A DNA stretch of 64,000 nt from Candidatus Nitrospira allomarina (GTDB lineage Bacteria; Nitrospirota; Nitrospiria; Nitrospirales; UBA8639), in NCBI RefSeq assembly GCF_032050975.1, contig NZ_CP116967.1:2787001-2851000 (forward strand). The letters run 5' to 3'. Positions within the stretch are counted from its first letter, which is position 1, and every line of letters begins with the position of its first letter. A program made the translations under genes and the position numbers. This document shows positions 573 through 15,987 of the stretch, in pieces. Under the pieces are notes generated by a model that made no database searches, was not told where the DNA came from, and worked only from the letters and a program-made list of their open reading frames with translations.

Positions 573-1811
573 ATGCAATTCCCGGATATCTCTGTGGGTT
601 CAATGAAGCAGATGACGACCGAAAATGTCCTCGATATGAAAGCGCCTTTCGGCGATCCTCTTTATACCATTCTCATTGTGGATGATGAAAAAGTTGTGCG
701 GATGGTCGCCAAGAAGCGTTTGGCCAAATTGCCGTGTCGGTTATTGGAGGCCGGTAGTGGGGAAGAAGCTCTGGCCATGCTGGATCAGGAACCGGTGGAT
801 CTCATTCTATCGGATTGGGTCATGCCCGGTCTTGATGGTCCTGGACTTTGTGAAGCGATTAAACAGGATGAACGCTATCGCACGATCCATTTTATCCTGA
901 TGACGGCATTGGACCACCCGACACAAATTGCCGAAGGGCTCAGCCGGGGAGCCGATGATTTTCTTTCCAAAACCGATTCCGATCATGAAATTGTCGCCAG
1001 AGTGTGCGCGGGCCTTCGAGCCCGGCAGTTGATGTTGTATGTGGAAAAGTCTAATCGGTTGTTATCACAAAAGCAGGCCGAATTAGACTCTGAACTCCGC
1101 TCGGCCTCCACCTTTGTGCGAGGTCTGCTTCCCCGGACCGGGGAAGTAATTCCTGGAGTGCGGGTGGAGTGGGAATTTTTGCCGTCGTCGCATTTGGGAG
1201 GAGATTTCTTTCAGATCGCCCGATGGGGCGACGACCATCTCGGTCTCATGGTGTTGGATATGTCGGGGCATGGGATCGGGCCGGCGTTGCGGGCTGTGTC
1301 GTTATCTCTGCTTTTCAAGGGAGACCACATGCAACAATTGTTTCCTTCCTACGATCCAGGTGAGATTCTGACGAGTCTGAACCAACAATATCCCATGAGC
1401 GATGATGGGGAGTACTTCACGATCTGGGTTGGGGTGTGGCAATGCTCCACGCGCCTTCTTCGATATGCGAGTGCGGGACATCCCGGTTCCATTGTTGTGA
1501 AAACCGACCGGTCGTCGATGATGTTGGGCGAGAGATCCTGGCCTATTGGTTTTTCGCGTAACGAGATATATGGAACTAATTCCATCTTCGTAAATTCCGG
1601 TGACCGGATGTATCTCTATAGTGATGGGATTTATGAGGTGATGAATTCTCAGGAGGAGATCTGGGGGAAAAAAAGGCTTCAGAAAGCACTTGAGGAGGTC
1701 GCCGGTCAGCCGATGCAGTCGGGATTGTCCCGTATTATCGAGCAGAGCCGGACATGGAATGCCAAAGGCGGGTTTGAGGATGACGTCGCGTTACTCGGAG
1801 TGGAGTTTTAG
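573..1811 (+). CDS. Response regulator with PP2C-type serine phosphatase output (RsbU/SpoIIE-like)
   Basis: The N-terminal ~30-150 residues are a receiver domain: acidic pocket ILIVDDE, phospho-acceptor Asp in LSDWVMPG, conserved Thr in LMTA, Lys in LSKTD. After a coiled linker, residues ~180-412 form a SpoIIE/PP2C phosphatase with metal-binding motifs GGDFFQ, LDMSGHG and the terminal EDDVALLG. Such proteins dephosphorylate a STAS anti-anti-sigma factor when the receiver is phosphorylated. A matching STAS protein (3143-3439) and HATPase kinase (1902-2879) follow at once, so this is probably the phosphatase arm of that switch. No convincing Shine-Dalgarno precedes the first ATG; starts at 603 or 615 are possible and would remove only non-domain residues. 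Confidence 0.85.
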   Translation: MQFPDISVGSMKQMTTENVLDMKAPFGDPLYTILIVDDEKVVRMVAKKRLAKLPCRLLEAGSGEEALAMLDQEPVDLILSDWVMPGLDGPGLCEAIKQDERYRTIHFILMTALDHPTQIAEGLSRGADDFLSKTDSDHEIVARVCAGLRARQLMLYVEKSNRLLSQKQAELDSELRSASTFVRGLLPRTGEVIPGVRVEWEFLPSSHLGGDFFQIARWGDDHLGLMVLDMSGHGIGPALRAVSLSLLFKGDHMQQLFPSYDPGEILTSLNQQYPMSDDGEYFTIWVGVWQCSTRLLRYASAGHPGSIVVKTDRSSMMLGERSWPIGFSRNEIYGTNSIFVNSGDRMYLYSDGIYEVMNSQEEIWGKKRLQKALEEVAGQPMQSGLSRIIEQSRTWNAKGGFEDDVALLGVEF

Positions 1812-3497: not shown

Positions 3498-4634
3498 GTG
3501 AATGGTGATTGGATGGTATGGATGGGTGTAGTGGTGGCCGGAGCCGGGATTGGCTATGTCTTGGGCGCCAGGAGCAGGCAGATGCGAATCAACCGGCTGG
3601 AACACCAACTGCAGGAAGGCATTCAGGCTCAGCGCCGTTGGTTAGAGAACTGGAAGGCCTTTTGCCAGTGTCTGGCACCGGTGTTTCCGGTATTTGTGGC
3701 ACAGATCAAGGCGGTCATTCAAGAAACAGGGCAAGCGGCCGACGGATTGATTCAGCGGTTTCAGGCAATTTCACGAAATGCCATAGAGCAGGTGGAGGAA
3801 ACCGAAGCGTTGTTACATATGGCAGATGGGCATGGGGGGAAAGATGACTATACCGTCGATCGGATCCTTCATGATACGCAGAAGACCATAGAAATGTTCG
3901 TCAAACAAGTCACACAGACGACCACGGTGACGCTCGCCACGGTGAGCGTGATGGAGCAGGCCTTAGAAACCACCTCTCGCATTTCCGAGGTGGTGGAGGA
4001 AGTGGAATTCATTGCCGATCAAACACGACTCTTAGCGCTTAATGCGGCGATTGAAGCCGCTCGGGCGGGAGAGCATGGCCGAGGGTTTGCCGTGGTGGCG
4101 GACGAAGTGACGAAATTGGCCAATCGGTCCGCGCAAGCCTCAGAGCAAATTCGTACTCTCGCGACGACGGTTAAAGGCACAACCGAATCGGCCATGTCGG
4201 AACTCCAGGTGTTGGCGTCATTAGACTTATCGGAAACGGTAGACGCTCAGAACCAGGTTCTGGAGATGATCAAAATTATGGGGCAAAAAAATGAGGCCTT
4301 AAAAAAGAGCGTTGGTCATAATTCGGGGCGAACCAAGGAACTGGGCAAGGATATCGGACAGATTGTGATGTCCATGCAATTCCAGGATATCACCCGTCAA
4401 AAATTAGAGCATGTCTACCAGCCATTGGAACGAATCCATGCGCCGCTTCAAGCGGTGGCCGACGATACTGACGGTTTAGACATGATGCCGAAGGTGCTCG
4501 AAGAAATCCGGAATCTCGAACACACCTACACCATGGAGTCTGAACGACTCACGATGCAGGCTGCGCGCTCGGGTCAAGGGACGGTGATGGTCGGAACCGG
4601 CTCGGATGAAGGAGATAACATCACGTTATTCTGA
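3498..4634 (+). CDS. Sensorless methyl-accepting-type signalling protein with CheZ-like DxxxQ motif
   Basis: The protein has a single N-terminal membrane segment (residues ~6-24) and no periplasmic sensor. A coiled receptor signalling hairpin follows, with the tip sequence [20 protein letters not shown] near residues 174-193. Past the hairpin lies FQDITRQ (Asp297, Gln301), which has the same DxxxQ spacing as the CheZ catalytic pair. It could bind CheA/CheW arrays from a membrane anchor or act on CheY-P; neither is shown. Start is GTG, chosen because GAGGTG lies a suitable distance upstream. The next gene is cheY, which would be the natural substrate if the motif is active. Confidence 0.75.
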
Positions 4635-5657: not shown

Positions 5658-5761
5658 GAAAATGCTGTTTCTCCGATCACAAGACAGCATGTTTCTCCGT
5701 TTTCCTTCTCCCGACTTTCTTCCTTTTAACTTTTCATTTTTGACATTTCATGAGGCAACCC

Positions 5762-7867
5762 ATGGCAGTTGATCTCTCACGGTTTCAAGAATCATTTTTT
5801 ACTGAATCCGCGGAACATGTGGAAACCATCGAGTCCGGTTTATTGGCGTTAGAGCAACGTCCGAACGACCTGGACTTACTGAATCGAATTTTTCGGGGCG
5901 CCCATTCGATTAAAGGCAACGCGGGGATGTTTCATTTTACGGCCATTGCCGAGTTGACTCACAAAATGGAAAACATTCTGGATGACCTCCGGAATGAGAA
6001 AATGCCGGTGACTCCTCAAGTCATCGATGTCCTGTTACGGGCGTTGGACGGTTTGAAAAGTCTTTTGGATGCGGCGCAAGGGGGTGAGGGGGCAGATGAG
6101 ACGGCCATTCACGTCTTAGAAGATGAACTGGAGGCCTGTCAGAAAGGAGCGACCGCTCCTGCACATGAGGGGTCGTTAGGTGAAACCGGTCCCCAGGGTT
6201 CTCCACTTCAAGCCGCCACGTGGCGAAGGGTCCAGATTGATTGGAGTGCCTTACCGGAATTATTTCAACGAGGCATGGATCCTGCCCAGATTTTCAAGGA
6301 ACTGCATGAGTTGGGCACGGTGAAAGTGCTGCATGTGCGAACCGATGGTCTTCCGGCTTTGGACACACTCGATCCAGAACGATGTTATCTCAGTTGGAAG
6401 GTGGAATTGGAAACGGATGCCCCTATTGGTCAGATTGAGGAGGTGTTTGCGTTTGTCCGGGATGGGAGCGAATTAGCCATCATCGATTGCGAACCGAAAA
6501 AACCGGAGCCCTATAAACGGGTGGGGGATATTCTGGTGGAAGAAGGGGTGGTGACCCCGGAGCAAATCGCCGAAAGTCTGGCCAAGCAAAAGCCGCTTGG
6601 CCAAATTCTGGTGGAAGAGAAAAAGGCGTCTTCTCAACAGGTCGAAAAAGCGCTTCAGAAGCAGCAGCAATTGAAAAAAAATGAAGTGGCGTCTATTCGG
6701 GTCGATACGGAAAAAATCGATAAATTGATCAATCTGGTAGGAGAATTGGTGATTACCCAATCGATGATTACGGACCTGAGTGAGAAATTTACCCTCGCGC
6801 AGCTTCCGGTTCTCCAGGAACGGATAACCCAATTGGAACGCAATACCCGGGAGATCCAAGAACGGGTCATGTCCATTCGGATGATGCCGATCGGCAGTGC
6901 ATTTCACCGGTTTCCACGGTTAGTTCGGGATCTCGCCGGGAAAAGTGGCAAGCAGATTCAATTGGTCATGTCCGGTGAGGAAACCGAGTTGGATAAAACG
7001 CTGATTGAGGCGATTGGCGATCCGCTCACCCATCTGGTTCGCAATTCGGCCGATCATGGGTTGGAGTTACCCGAAGACCGGGTGGCTCAAGGCAAATCGG
7101 AACGCGGAACCATTCGTCTCCATGCGTATCACGATGGCGGCAATATTTGTATTGCCGTGGAGGATGACGGGCGAGGATTGAACCGGGAAAAGATCATTAA
7201 AAAAGCCGTCGAAAAGGGGATCATTGCCGATGGCAGTAATATGTCGGAGGAAGCCGTGTATCAACTGATTTTTCGTCCTGGATTTTCCACGGCGGAGACC
7301 ATCACCGATGTGTCAGGTCGAGGGGTGGGGATGGATGTGGTGAAACGTAATATCGAAGGTCTTGGCGGGTCAGTGGACATTCAGAGCACGATGGGCAAGG
7401 GCTCTCGTCTCACGCTGAAATTGCCGCTCACGCTGGCCATCATTGACGGGATGACTGTCCGGGTCGGTCAGGATAACTACATTATCCCGCTTATTGCGGT
7501 CACCGAATCCATTCGCCCTAAACCCAATGAGTTGCAACGGATCGTGGGAAAAGGCGAGGTGGTCAATCTTCGTGGAGAATGGGTGCCGGTGGTCAAGCTC
7601 TATGAGGCGTTTACCCTCACGCCCGACTTTACCGATCCCTCGCAGGCTTTGTTGGTGATCGTGGAAACCGATGGTCGGCGATTGGCCGTGCTCGTGGATG
7701 AACTGACGGGGCAACAACAAGTGGTCATTAAGAGTTTGGAGCAAAACTATCGCAAGGTCGAGGCTATTTCCGGAGCCACCATTCTGGGGGACGGGCAGGT
7801 CGCCTTGATCTTGGATGTACCGGGATTGGCCAAATTGGCACGGGTTGGCCGCATTGCGGCGGCGTAA
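5762..7867 (+). CDS. cheA: Chemotaxis histidine kinase CheA (first copy), with inserted MshEN-like repeats
   Basis: Domains in order: Hpt/P1 with the phospho-acceptor His in AHSIKGNAGM (about residue 48), a P2-like region, two short repeats VGDILVEEGVVTP... and LGQILVEEKKAS... (about 252-301), the dimerisation helices, the ATPase (HLVRNSADHGLE, DDGRGLN, DVSGRGVGMDVV) and a C-terminal CheW-like domain. It autophosphorylates under receptor control and passes phosphate to CheY and CheB. The repeats resemble the small N-terminal domain of GspE/MshE-type ATPases that can bind c-di-GMP; this is similarity by eye. ATG 5762 is preferred over ATG 5750 because GAGG lies 6-7 bases upstream of it. Confidence 0.93.
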   Translation: MAVDLSRFQESFFTESAEHVETIESGLLALEQRPNDLDLLNRIFRGAHSIKGNAGMFHFTAIAELTHKMENILDDLRNEKMPVTPQVIDVLLRALDGLKSLLDAAQGGEGADETAIHVLEDELEACQKGATAPAHEGSLGETGPQGSPLQAATWRRVQIDWSALPELFQRGMDPAQIFKELHELGTVKVLHVRTDGLPALDTLDPERCYLSWKVELETDAPIGQIEEVFAFVRDGSELAIIDCEPKKPEPYKRVGDILVEEGVVTPEQIAESLAKQKPLGQILVEEKKASSQQVEKALQKQQQLKKNEVASIRVDTEKIDKLINLVGELVITQSMITDLSEKFTLAQLPVLQERITQLERNTREIQERVMSIRMMPIGSAFHRFPRLVRDLAGKSGKQIQLVMSGEETELDKTLIEAIGDPLTHLVRNSADHGLELPEDRVAQGKSERGTIRLHAYHDGGNICIAVEDDGRGLNREKIIKKAVEKGIIADGSNMSEEAVYQLIFRPGFSTAETITDVSGRGVGMDVVKRNIEGLGGSVDIQSTMGKGSRLTLKLPLTLAIIDGMTVRVGQDNYIIPLIAVTESIRPKPNELQRIVGKGEVVNLRGEWVPVVKLYEAFTLTPDFTDPSQALLVIVETDGRRLAVLVDELTGQQQVVIKSLEQNYRKVEAISGATILGDGQVALILDVPGLAKLARVGRIAAA

Positions 7868-7998: not shown

Positions 7999-8541
7999 AT
8001 GATGACCACCGCGACGGCTGAACCGACAGAACAACGCTCGATTCGAACGACGTATGCCAGGGACGATCAACAATATCTGACCTTCAATCTGGCGGATGAA
8101 TATTACGGAGTGGATATTCTGAAAGTGCAGGAGATTAAGGGATACACCACGGTGACCAGGATCCCCAATACCCCGGATTTTCTTAAAGGGGTCCTCAACC
8201 TTCGTGGCACAATTGTGCCCATTGTGGATCTTCGCATGAAATTCGGCATGGGAGTGACCGAACCCACGTCGTTCACCGTAGTGGTTGTGGTCAATGTCCG
8301 GAAACGTGTGATGGGTTTTCTGGTCGATGCGGTGTCCGATGTGTTGGATATGAATGCCAAGGATATTCAGGCCCCTCCGGACATGGGCACCTCGGTCGAT
8401 GTCACATTTATCGCCGGCATTGGGAATGCCCAGGATCGCTTAGTGACCCTGTTGGACATTGATCGGGTTCTCACGGAGGAGGAAGTAATCGTCGTGGAAA
8501 ACATTCAAGACGTGGAAGAAAAAGCTGAGGTCCATGCCTGA
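7999..8541 (+). CDS. cheW: Chemotaxis coupling protein CheW
   Basis: A 180-residue CheW with the usual features: [21 protein letters not shown], the conserved [15 protein letters not shown] strand pair, and VDAVSDVL near the end of the first barrel. It links CheA to receptor tips. AAAGGAG sits about 6 bases before the tandem ATG start. It lies between cheA1 and the two receptors with FFEEF tails, so it is likely the coupler of that array. The gap before it contains only GTGAAGG/GTAAGG-rich sequence. Confidence 0.93.
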
Positions 8542-15378: not shown

Positions 15379-15987
15379 ATGTCATCGACAGGATTGATGG
15401 AATTTGGACATATACGCCGCATGCAGGATACCCGCTTTCCTTATGAAGTGGCCGTCATTCTCCCTGGTGAATATTTTGTGAGCCGGGAGCCCAAAGTCAT
15501 CTATACGGTGTTGGGTTCCTGTATCTCAGTGTGTTTGCGGGATCCACTGGCGGGCGTGGGAGGGATGAATCATTTCATGTTAGCGGCTCCTTCCAATACT
15601 GAAGGACACGATAATTGGGCGGATTCGGGACGATACGGCAGTTTTGCCATGGAAATGCTGATGAACGATATTTTCAAGCGAGGCGGAAAAAAGGAGCGAC
15701 TCGAAGCGAAGGTCTTCGGCGGTGGGAAAATTTATGATGGCTCCATTGATATTGGGGCCCAAAATGCCGCTTGGGCTCTTGCCTTTTTGGAACAGGAGGG
15801 TCTGTCGCCTATCAAAGCGGATGTCGGAGATGTCTGTCCTCGGAAGGTATACTATTTCACGGATTCGGGGAAAGTGCTCATGAAAAAACTCGACCGTATC
15901 GTGGCAAGTGAGATTGCGAAGGAGGAGGGGCAGTATCGGAAGAAGCTTCAACATGCTCCTGTGCAAGCGGACGTTACGCTATTTTGA
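15379..15987 (+). CDS. cheD: Chemoreceptor glutamine deamidase CheD
   Basis: This 202-residue protein has the CheD active-site pattern: Cys in VLGSCISVCLRDP and His in GGMNHFML, with the later VFGGGKI..GAQNA strand region. CheD converts receptor glutamines to glutamates and in some species also stimulates a CheY-P phosphatase. It lies between cheR and cheB as one adaptation module. The start ATG follows an AAGGTAAGGA stretch. Confidence 0.93.
   Translation: MSSTGLMEFGHIRRMQDTRFPYEVAVILPGEYFVSREPKVIYTVLGSCISVCLRDPLAGVGGMNHFMLAAPSNTEGHDNWADSGRYGSFAMEMLMNDIFKRGGKKERLEAKVFGGGKIYDGSIDIGAQNAAWALAFLEQEGLSPIKADVGDVCPRKVYYFTDSGKVLMKKLDRIVASEIAKEEGQYRKKLQHAPVQADVTLF

What the first reader, a model, noticed from the sequence alone, without database searches (positions are those of the whole stretch)
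3498..4634. Membrane-anchored receptor hairpin with CheZ-type DxxxQ motif
The protein has no sensor domain but keeps the receptor tip and, after it, FQDITRQ with Asp297/Gln301 spaced as in CheZ (SFQDLVAQ in the CheZ of this locus). It may place CheY-P phosphatase activity at the array or membrane. It sits directly before a cheY gene.
Basis: partly seen in the sequence, partly recalled or inferred. Interest (0 to 1): 0.5.

Follow-up and report, generated by a model that had tools for sequence, protein, structure and literature searches.

The report
Chemoreceptor carrying a CheZ-like phosphatase motif
A membrane-anchored bacterial chemoreceptor with no sensor domain carries, in every relative examined, the two catalytic-type residues of the enzyme that switches off the chemotaxis signal CheY-P, so a little-understood receptor family may be a built-in off-switch; this is a prediction, not yet tested.

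Summary
The ORF at 3498-4634 (378 aa) is a sensorless chemoreceptor with a predicted membrane helix, an intact hairpin tip and FQDITRQ (D297/Q301), just before cheY. I place it with the McpA-like receptors (CttP/PA0180, VCA1088, SO_2117), in an F7-type cluster without cheZ. The function of that family is stated in print to be unclear.

New evidence: D297 and Q301 are present in 68 of 68 family members, from Nitrospirota to Vibrio, Aeromonas and Pseudomonas. In 43 representatives under 80% identical, the only invariant residues outside the tip are Q294, F295, D297 and Q301. The flanking hydrophobic pattern matches CheZ in register in 40 of 43 (r at least 0.5), against 2 of 113 control receptors even with free shift. 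Q294, Q296 and Q301 are never Glu, which argues against a methylation or deamidation site.

Against: it is not a CheZ family member by score; the sequence similarity vanishes when the motif is masked; a Pseudomonas-type receptor class has D-x3-Q at the same distance, facing another side. No activity was tested.

Verdict: probably a receptor-built CheY-P phosphatase (0.55). Nine searches of an open-access library showed me no statement of this.

The parts
3498..4634 (+). mcpA-like gene, 378 aa sensorless chemoreceptor with CheZ-type motif
   Evidence: ORF; PF00015 E 2.7e-27; family model 595 bits (same ORF as L001)
3513..3569 (+). predicted membrane anchor, residues 6-24
   Evidence: hydropathy; helix in model
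4014..4130 (+). hairpin tip (residues 173-211), intact; contact region for CheA/CheW and other receptors (recalled)
   Evidence: invariant columns
4380..4400 (+). FQDITRQ, residues 295-301; D297 at 4386-4388, Q301 at 4398-4400
   Evidence: D and Q 68 of 68; aligned on CheZ FQDLTGQ by hhalign
4527..4547 (+). conserved YTMESER motif (residues 344-350), function unknown
   Evidence: Y 60, T 60, E349 60, R 62 of 68
4617..4631 (+). C-terminal tail NITLF, shared in kind with CheD of the same cluster
573..1811 (+). receiver-SpoIIE/PP2C phosphatase (serine phosphatase of the cluster)
   Evidence: PF00072 and PF07228
1887..2879 (+). receiver-HATPase_c_2 (anti-sigma kinase type)
   Evidence: PF00072 and PF13581
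3143..3439 (+). STAS anti-sigma antagonist
   Evidence: PF13466 and PF01740
4793..5164 (+). cheY of cluster 1, proposed substrate
   Evidence: PF00072; adjacency
5750..7867 (+). cheA of cluster 1; its best-ranked plasmid-library matches are enterobacterial and Vibrio CheA
   Evidence: Pfam; tblastn
7999..8541 (+). cheW
   Evidence: PF01584
14441..15298 (+). cheR
   Evidence: PF01739
15379..15987 (+). cheD, ends ADVTLF
   Evidence: PF03975
16301..17368 (+). cheB
   Evidence: PF01339
24740..25141 (+). cheY-like receiver of cluster 2, directly before the true cheZ
   Evidence: PF00072
25187..25828 (+). true cheZ, SFQDLVAQ
   Evidence: PF04344 49.0 bits

Best explanation
The gene encodes an McpA-like receptor that works as a membrane-anchored, receptor-built CheY-P phosphatase for its own chemosensory cluster. 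Shown: a sensorless MCP hairpin with an intact tip; an F-x-D-x3-Q invariant in the family on the descending helix, in the same heptad register as in CheZ and near the level of the methylation helix of ordinary receptors; cheY as the usual next gene; no cheZ in the cluster. Inferred: the receptor dimer is a four-helix bundle made of two hairpins, as CheZ is, and presents D297 and Q301 on its surface. D297 would hold the conserved Lys of CheY (K106 here), and Q301 would enter the active site at D54 and position the attacking water, as D143/Q147 do in CheZ (mechanism recalled). The tip would place the activity in arrays, and the C-terminal tail would be a docking peptide for a partner it shares with CheD.
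For: D297, Q301, F295 and Q294 each 68 of 68. In 43 representatives these four are the only invariant residues outside the tip. Profile-profile match to CheZ with FQD on FQD, probability 93.2, E 2.9e-7 for one comparison. PF04344 is the second most frequent Pfam match in the family, 30 of 43 at E up to 10, best 5.7e-6. Own CheZ model: family median 20.2 bits (window protein 18.1), 58 control receptors 8.95. Flank hydropathy r = 0.74 at register 0, next best 0.49; per sequence 40 of 43 at 0.5 or above, and register 0 is the best of shifts -3 to 3 in 42 of 43, while controls given the same freedom reach 0.5 in 2 of 113, maximum 0.56. Next gene cheY in 25 of 36 family ORFs by script. Model and fold search: the top 16 of 647 matches are chemoreceptors. 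Literature: stage 1 and 2 F7 clusters have cheY but no cheZ, and the role of McpA is unclear (PMC7184735, passages). The genome's only CheZ match is in the other cluster.
Against: No CheZ hit for the window protein in Pfam at E up to 10 (HMMER's filters drop most weak matches). Family places visible in the capped list score 23.2-25.7 bits, under the 30.7 cut-off, and another frame scores the same there (G083, 25.8 bits). Unrelated coiled-coil families reach similar best E-values in the same scan (DUF948 15 of 43, best 7.2e-6). Replacing four motif residues removes the CheZ signal (median 7.85 bits; probability 7.9 or 21.4), so homology is not shown. Ordinary receptors reach 78% probability by coiled coil alone. 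An IxDLSxQ-type receptor class has D and Q at the same distance from the tip. All 29 of 148 Nitrospirota genomes with a member over 170 bits also have a CheZ match over the cut-off, so it does not replace CheZ. The AlphaFold helix has a one-residue break at 294, which may distort the site. The gammaproteobacterial evidence rests on three sequences, and PA0180, VCA1088 and SO_2117 themselves were not available.
Confidence: 0.55

Rival explanations
1. The motif is a non-catalytic feature of the receptor: a polar layer, kink or dimer contact in the descending helix that tunes signalling, and its likeness to CheZ is convergence.
For: The similarity to CheZ is confined to the motif. Pseudomonas-type receptors, for which I know of no phosphatase activity, have IxDLxxQ at the same distance from the tip, 11 of 113 controls. 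AlphaFold puts a helix break at residue 294.
Against: Those receptors have a different hydrophobic register (r about -0.26 to CheZ, n 11). A purely structural role does not predict invariance of F, D and Q with the CheZ spacing when everything else outside the tip varies.
Confidence: 0.22
2. The phosphatase site is real but acts on another receiver: the receiver-SpoIIE phosphatase or the receiver-HATPase protein encoded upstream, so the receptor sets a partner-switching stress output rather than CheY.
For: Both proteins have receiver domains, and such genes lie in the window cluster and in several Nitrospirota clusters. In Shewanella the corresponding cluster is tied to RpoS through CrsR/CrsA (PMC9855816, passages).
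Against: In one search SpoIIE- or HATPase-type genes are often missing from the stretch or placed at the far end of the cluster (stretches are at most 20 kb and some end at contig ends), while cheY is usually adjacent.
Confidence: 0.13
3. The Gln residues in this helix are substrates of CheD/CheR/CheB, that is an unusual methylation helix MH2 with Gln deamidated by the CheD of the cluster.
For: Tar methylation site E491 maps to residue 294 by ungapped distance from the tip; the cluster has cheR, cheD and cheB.
Against: Q294 and Q301 are Gln in 68 of 68 and Q296 in 67 of 68 (the other is Thr), never Glu, whereas modification sites interchange Q and E (recalled). The small residues that flank such sites (recalled) are missing, and the other three Tar sites map to [18 protein letters not shown] and a loop. 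D297 and F295 are not explained.
Confidence: 0.07

Closest known systems
McpA-like receptors of F7 chemosensory clusters (CttP/PA0180, VCA1088, SO_2117)
   Same: MCP signalling domain, membrane anchor, no sensor domain, place in a cluster with serine phosphatase, STAS, cheY, cheA, cheW, receptor, cheR, cheD, cheB; C-terminal tail that is not the CheR pentapeptide. A Vibrio F7-cluster relative scores 148 bits with the family model and keeps D-x3-Q.
   Different: The window protein has FQDITRQ, the Vibrio relative FTDIIVQ. A phosphatase motif in McpA is not mentioned in the passages of PMC7184735, PMC7534058 and PMC9855816 that I saw; in PMC9855816 the words phosphatase and CheZ do not occur in the main text.
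CheZ (PF04344), CheY-P phosphatase
   Same: FQD-[LI]-T-x-Q, register of the flanking heptads, helical hairpin expected to pair into a four-helix bundle (recalled).
   Different: It is an MCP with a receptor tip and membrane anchor; no CheZ family hit over the cut-off; no CheZ-type C-terminal peptide (VDxLLxxFGF-like), only a short tail ending ITLF.
CheW-CheZ fusions of other Nitrospirota (L107, L112, L136)
   Same: They also couple a CheZ activity to an array protein.
   Different: True CheZ domain behind a CheW domain; no receptor hairpin.
Pseudomonas-type receptors with IxDLSxQ
   Same: D and Q at the same distance from the tip.
   Different: Flanking hydrophobic pattern out of register with CheZ; I instead of F at the first position.

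Membership tests
McpA-like receptors (as defined in PMC7184735 by clustering with PA0180) | MCP signalling domain and membrane region | tested here: met
   PF00015 E 2.7e-27; hydropathy 6-24
McpA-like receptors (as defined in PMC7184735 by clustering with PA0180) | located with an F7-type cluster beside STAS and serine phosphatase | tested here: met
   CheA ranked nearest to enterobacterial and Vibrio CheA in the plasmid library; order described in PMC7184735. The F7 class itself was not assigned with a class model.
McpA-like receptors (as defined in PMC7184735 by clustering with PA0180) | conserved C-terminus without the x-[HFYW]-x2-[HFYW] pentapeptide, Val at the second place in PA0180 | tested here: met
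   tail NITLF; V or I in 61 of 68 at that place, six gaps and one K; the published logo was not seen
McpA-like receptors (as defined in PMC7184735 by clustering with PA0180) | sequence clustering with PA0180 itself | not tested
McpA-like receptors (as defined in PMC7184735 by clustering with PA0180) | physical association with the flagellar (F6) array | not testable with these tools
   reported for P. aeruginosa and Shewanella (PMC7184735, PMC7534058, PMC9855816, passages)
CheZ (PF04344) | family score over 30.7 bits | tested here: not met
   no hit at E up to 10; family places visible at 23.2-25.7 bits
CheZ (PF04344) | D-x3-Q catalytic pair in FQDxxxQ | tested here: met
CheZ (PF04344) | C-terminal amphipathic CheY-binding peptide | tested here: not met
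   tail DEGDNITLF lacks the VDxLLxxFGF-like end of the CheZs, by eye
CheZ (PF04344) | CheY-P dephosphorylation | not testable with these tools
   needs an assay
CheC/CheX/FliY phosphatases | family domain (E-x2-N motif, recalled) | tested here: not met
   no such Pfam hit at E up to 10

The most novel reading that the evidence does not exclude
The McpA-like receptors of F7-type systems, from Nitrospirota to Vibrio and Pseudomonas, are chemoreceptors that have become enzymes. They are array-embedded CheY-P phosphatases built into the receptor hairpin at the place of the methylation helix, so the receptor itself ends the signal of a system without cheZ, or, when they sit in the flagellar array, drains CheY-P there and couples the two systems.
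Probability: 0.45. Interest if true: 0.82.

Novelty: new variant of a known kind. Interest (0 to 1): 0.62.

Why it matters
F7 is the lineage from which the E. coli chemotaxis system descends. The published account (PMC7184735, passages) says stage 1 and 2 F7 systems have cheY but no cheZ of their own, that the function of McpA-like receptors is unclear, that it is puzzling how they can serve F7 while sitting in the flagellar array, and that their conserved tail has no known role. A receptor-borne phosphatase would answer the first points with one testable residue pair, and would be a chemoreceptor with an enzymatic output of its own. D297/Q301, and their equivalents (if present) in laboratory strains such as Shewanella oneidensis MR-1, make the question directly testable.

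Tried and rejected
Rejected: CheZ family membership (score below the cut-off). Rejected: the idea that McpA replaces CheZ in the genome, since 29 of 29 member genomes also have a CheZ match. Rejected: D-x3-Q at a fixed distance from the tip as sufficient evidence, since 13 of 113 other receptors have it. Rejected as proof of homology: the profile match to CheZ, because it vanishes when the motif is masked. Led nowhere: tblastn of the window protein in plasmids at 1e-5 gave no match and at 10 only weak places, though the best of them was the Aeromonas relative; a viral-contig scan (best 80 of 281 kept) gave receptors useful only as controls (best family-model score 122 bits), and a second viral scan found no relative; of the later paper searches, one search found no paper, five that did not bear on the question, and only the two McpA papers already known. 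The Pseudoalteromonas, Sphingobium, Xanthomonas, Azospirillum and Paroceanicella regions gave no McpA relative by my motif scripts.

Rows dropped before counts: L035 and L042 (open frames broken near the motif) were left out of the 68; identical proteins were counted once; the 68 include the window's own protein. A fragment in G009 that matches only residues 263-378 (115.6 bits) was not included. Control receptors without room after the tip were left out (113 distinct ones remained). In one search, L138b and L165 are the same gene counted twice; L103 was missed by the script although its annotated response regulator begins 10 bases downstream, and L164 was missed because its cheY frame is over the script's length limit.

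Full report
What is there. The ORF at 3498-4634 encodes a 378-residue protein with a predicted membrane helix at 6-24, a long helical hairpin (AlphaFold model, mean pLDDT 79.7, pTM 0.41) and the highly conserved receptor tip. Pfam sees only the MCP signalling domain above its cut-off. The top 16 of 647 structural matches are chemoreceptors. FQDITRQ occupies residues 295-301. The window lies in a complete 4.55 Mb genome whose closest named relatives here are Nitrospirales; five places in it, this gene included, match the protein at E up to 0.001.

What family. The gene order SpoIIE-type phosphatase, receiver-ATPase, STAS, this gene, cheY, cheA, cheW, receptors, cheR, cheD, cheB resembles that described for 'stage 2' F7 clusters: mcpA-like receptor, anti-sigma antagonist and serine phosphatase in front of the chemosensory genes (PMC7184735, passages). 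The cluster's CheA is ranked nearest, in the plasmid library, to enterobacterial and Vibrio CheA. A family model built from 15 orthologues finds, after 66 proteins nearly all from Nitrospirota records, the receptors of the F7-type clusters of Aeromonas BC14, Vibrio THAF191d and Pseudomonas HR96 (147-152 bits), then L077 (132 bits); the best other receptor scores 111. I therefore place the protein with the McpA-like receptors; PA0180 itself could not be compared. Their function is described as unclear (PMC7184735), and no experimental report was available for VCA1088 in 2020 (PMC7534058, passage). McpA of Shewanella clusters with the flagellar array (PMC9855816, passages).

Conservation. In 68 non-identical family members, the window's included, F295, D297, Q301 and Q294 are each present in 68; Q296 in 67. 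In 43 representatives under 80% identity, down to about 20% identity to the window protein, the complete list of invariant columns is 14 residues of the tip (180-207) plus Q294, F295, D297 and Q301. The distance from the tip is constant in 66 of 68; L077 and L060 have two and three extra residues. The motif reads FQDITRQ in 48 of 68; in Vibrio it is FTDIIVQ, in Aeromonas and Pseudomonas HR96 FQDRVSQ.

Comparison with CheZ. Fifteen CheZ proteins, including that of E. coli K-12 and that of the window, have invariant F141, Q142, D143 and Q147 in E. coli numbering. Profile comparison aligns the two families with FQD on FQD (probability 93.2, E 2.9e-7 for a single comparison). Pfam CheZ is matched by 30 of 43 representatives at E up to 10, best 5.7e-6, but so is the coiled-coil family DUF948 by 15 of 43, best 7.2e-6, and the window protein itself has no CheZ match in Pfam. 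In a scan of 148 Nitrospirota genomes with PF04344, eight McpA places and the G009 fragment are visible in the capped list at 23.2-25.7 bits, all under the cut-off of 30.7, together with other frames of equal score. Controls: with a CheZ model of my own, the family median is 20.2 bits (window protein 18.1), 58 other receptors 8.95 (maximum 16.3), and the family with four motif residues changed 7.85. Profile comparison falls to 7.9 or 21.4% when these columns are masked, while generic receptors reach 78% through coiled coil elsewhere. So the sequence similarity is the motif; common descent with CheZ is not shown.

Register. The hydrophobicity of the 35 flanking positions (motif left out) correlates between McpA and CheZ with r = 0.74 in register and at most 0.49 at any other shift up to 7. 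Per sequence, 40 of 43 McpA-like proteins reach 0.5 against 0 of 113 other receptors held at the same distance from the tip. Given free choice among shifts of -3 to 3, 2 of 113 controls reach 0.5 (maximum 0.56), while 42 of 43 family members are best at shift 0. This matters because a control showed that 13 of 113 other receptors, 11 of them of one Pseudomonas-like type with IxDLxxQ, also have D and Q at that exact distance from the tip. That type has r near -0.26 to CheZ, so its D and Q should face another way. The McpA motif is thus set into the helix as in CheZ, and the look-alike is not.

Could CheY reach it? By ungapped distance from the tip, residue 294 corresponds to methylation site E491 of Tar, a region that CheR and CheB reach in ordinary receptors (recalled). 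The mapping is approximate: the receptor length class of McpA is unsettled in print and my profile alignment to Tar does not extend that far. CheY is smaller than CheR or CheB (recalled).

Neighbours. cheY lies within 600 bases downstream on the same strand in 25 of 36 family ORFs; two are at contig ends and nine were not found so by the script. Of these nine, L103 has an annotated response regulator 10 bases downstream, L164 has a cheY frame over the script's length limit, and L138b and L165 are one gene. In the window the second receiver gene (24740) is followed by the true cheZ (25187). Each of the two cheY-type genes therefore lies beside a gene for a D-x3-Q protein. CheZ matches over the cut-off occur in 29 of 29 genomes (of 148) with a family member over 170 bits, so this protein adds to CheZ rather than replacing it.

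Tail. A C-terminus of the form (V/I)-x-(L/I/F)-F is kept in most members; F is last in 60 of 68. CheD of the same cluster often ends alike (window NITLF and DVTLF; L164 GDIELF and GDIELF; Vibrio GEVELF and DDVELF). Tabulated by eye, of 23 clusters with both genes 12 have both tails, 6 neither, 5 only the McpA tail and none only the CheD tail (Fisher p 0.0046, not corrected for kinship). One CheD with such a tail occurs in a cluster where I found no McpA (L106). The partner is unknown.

Substrate. CheY1 has D54 with N56 at D+2, T84 with E86 at T+2, and K106 (sequence, my numbering). N and E at these two places are as in E. coli CheY (recalled).

Judgement. A receptor-built CheY-P phosphatase explains the invariant quartet, the register, the adjacency and the lack of cheZ in the cluster. 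A structural role, another receiver as substrate, and a modification site remain as rivals in that order. Nothing here measures activity. I saw no statement of this idea in the listings of nine searches of the open-access library; subscription papers and preprints were not covered, and of the papers cited I saw passages only.

Noticed in passing
L107:808-2082, L112:823-2004, L136:1237-2421 (and others with about 400 aa): In other Nitrospirota the CheZ is a CheW-CheZ fusion: CheW domain at the N-terminus, CheZ at the C-terminus (three of three scanned), which would fix the phosphatase to the array. One paper search listed nothing on it.
   Followed up: partly
window 15379-15987 and 3498-4634; L164; L100: CheD and the McpA-like receptor of one cluster share a C-terminal (V/I)-x-(L/I/F)-F tail; in the 6 clusters whose McpA lacks it, CheD lacks it too. 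Suggests a common docking partner.
   Followed up: partly
window residues 344-350 of the protein, 4527-4547: YTMESER is strongly conserved near the C-terminus (YATDEQR in Aeromonas, YATSEQR in Pseudomonas HR96) but not seen in the Vibrio relative; function unknown.
   Followed up: no
L166:10983-12089 (L081), L138:15891-16892: Second, diverged McpA-like genes in two Nitrospirota genomes with FQDISRQ but without the VTLF-type tail.
   Followed up: no
L103:17325-18965 and L194, L217, L224, L225, L227, L229, L237, L241, L242, L246: Ordinary receptors of a Pseudomonas-like type conserve IxDLxxQ (mostly IxDLSxQ) at the same distance from the tip; why D and Q are kept there is unexplained.
   Followed up: partly
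L035:897-1838, L042:5854-6888: In two records (a Nitrospinota-labelled bin and Nitrospira moscoviensis) the reading frame of the homologue lacks the motif because the frame is interrupted; sequencing error or decay not distinguished.
   Followed up: no
G009:C5:438048-438395: A fragment of a family member matching only residues 263-378 in a 244-residue frame, also hit by the CheZ model at 23.5 bits.
   Followed up: no
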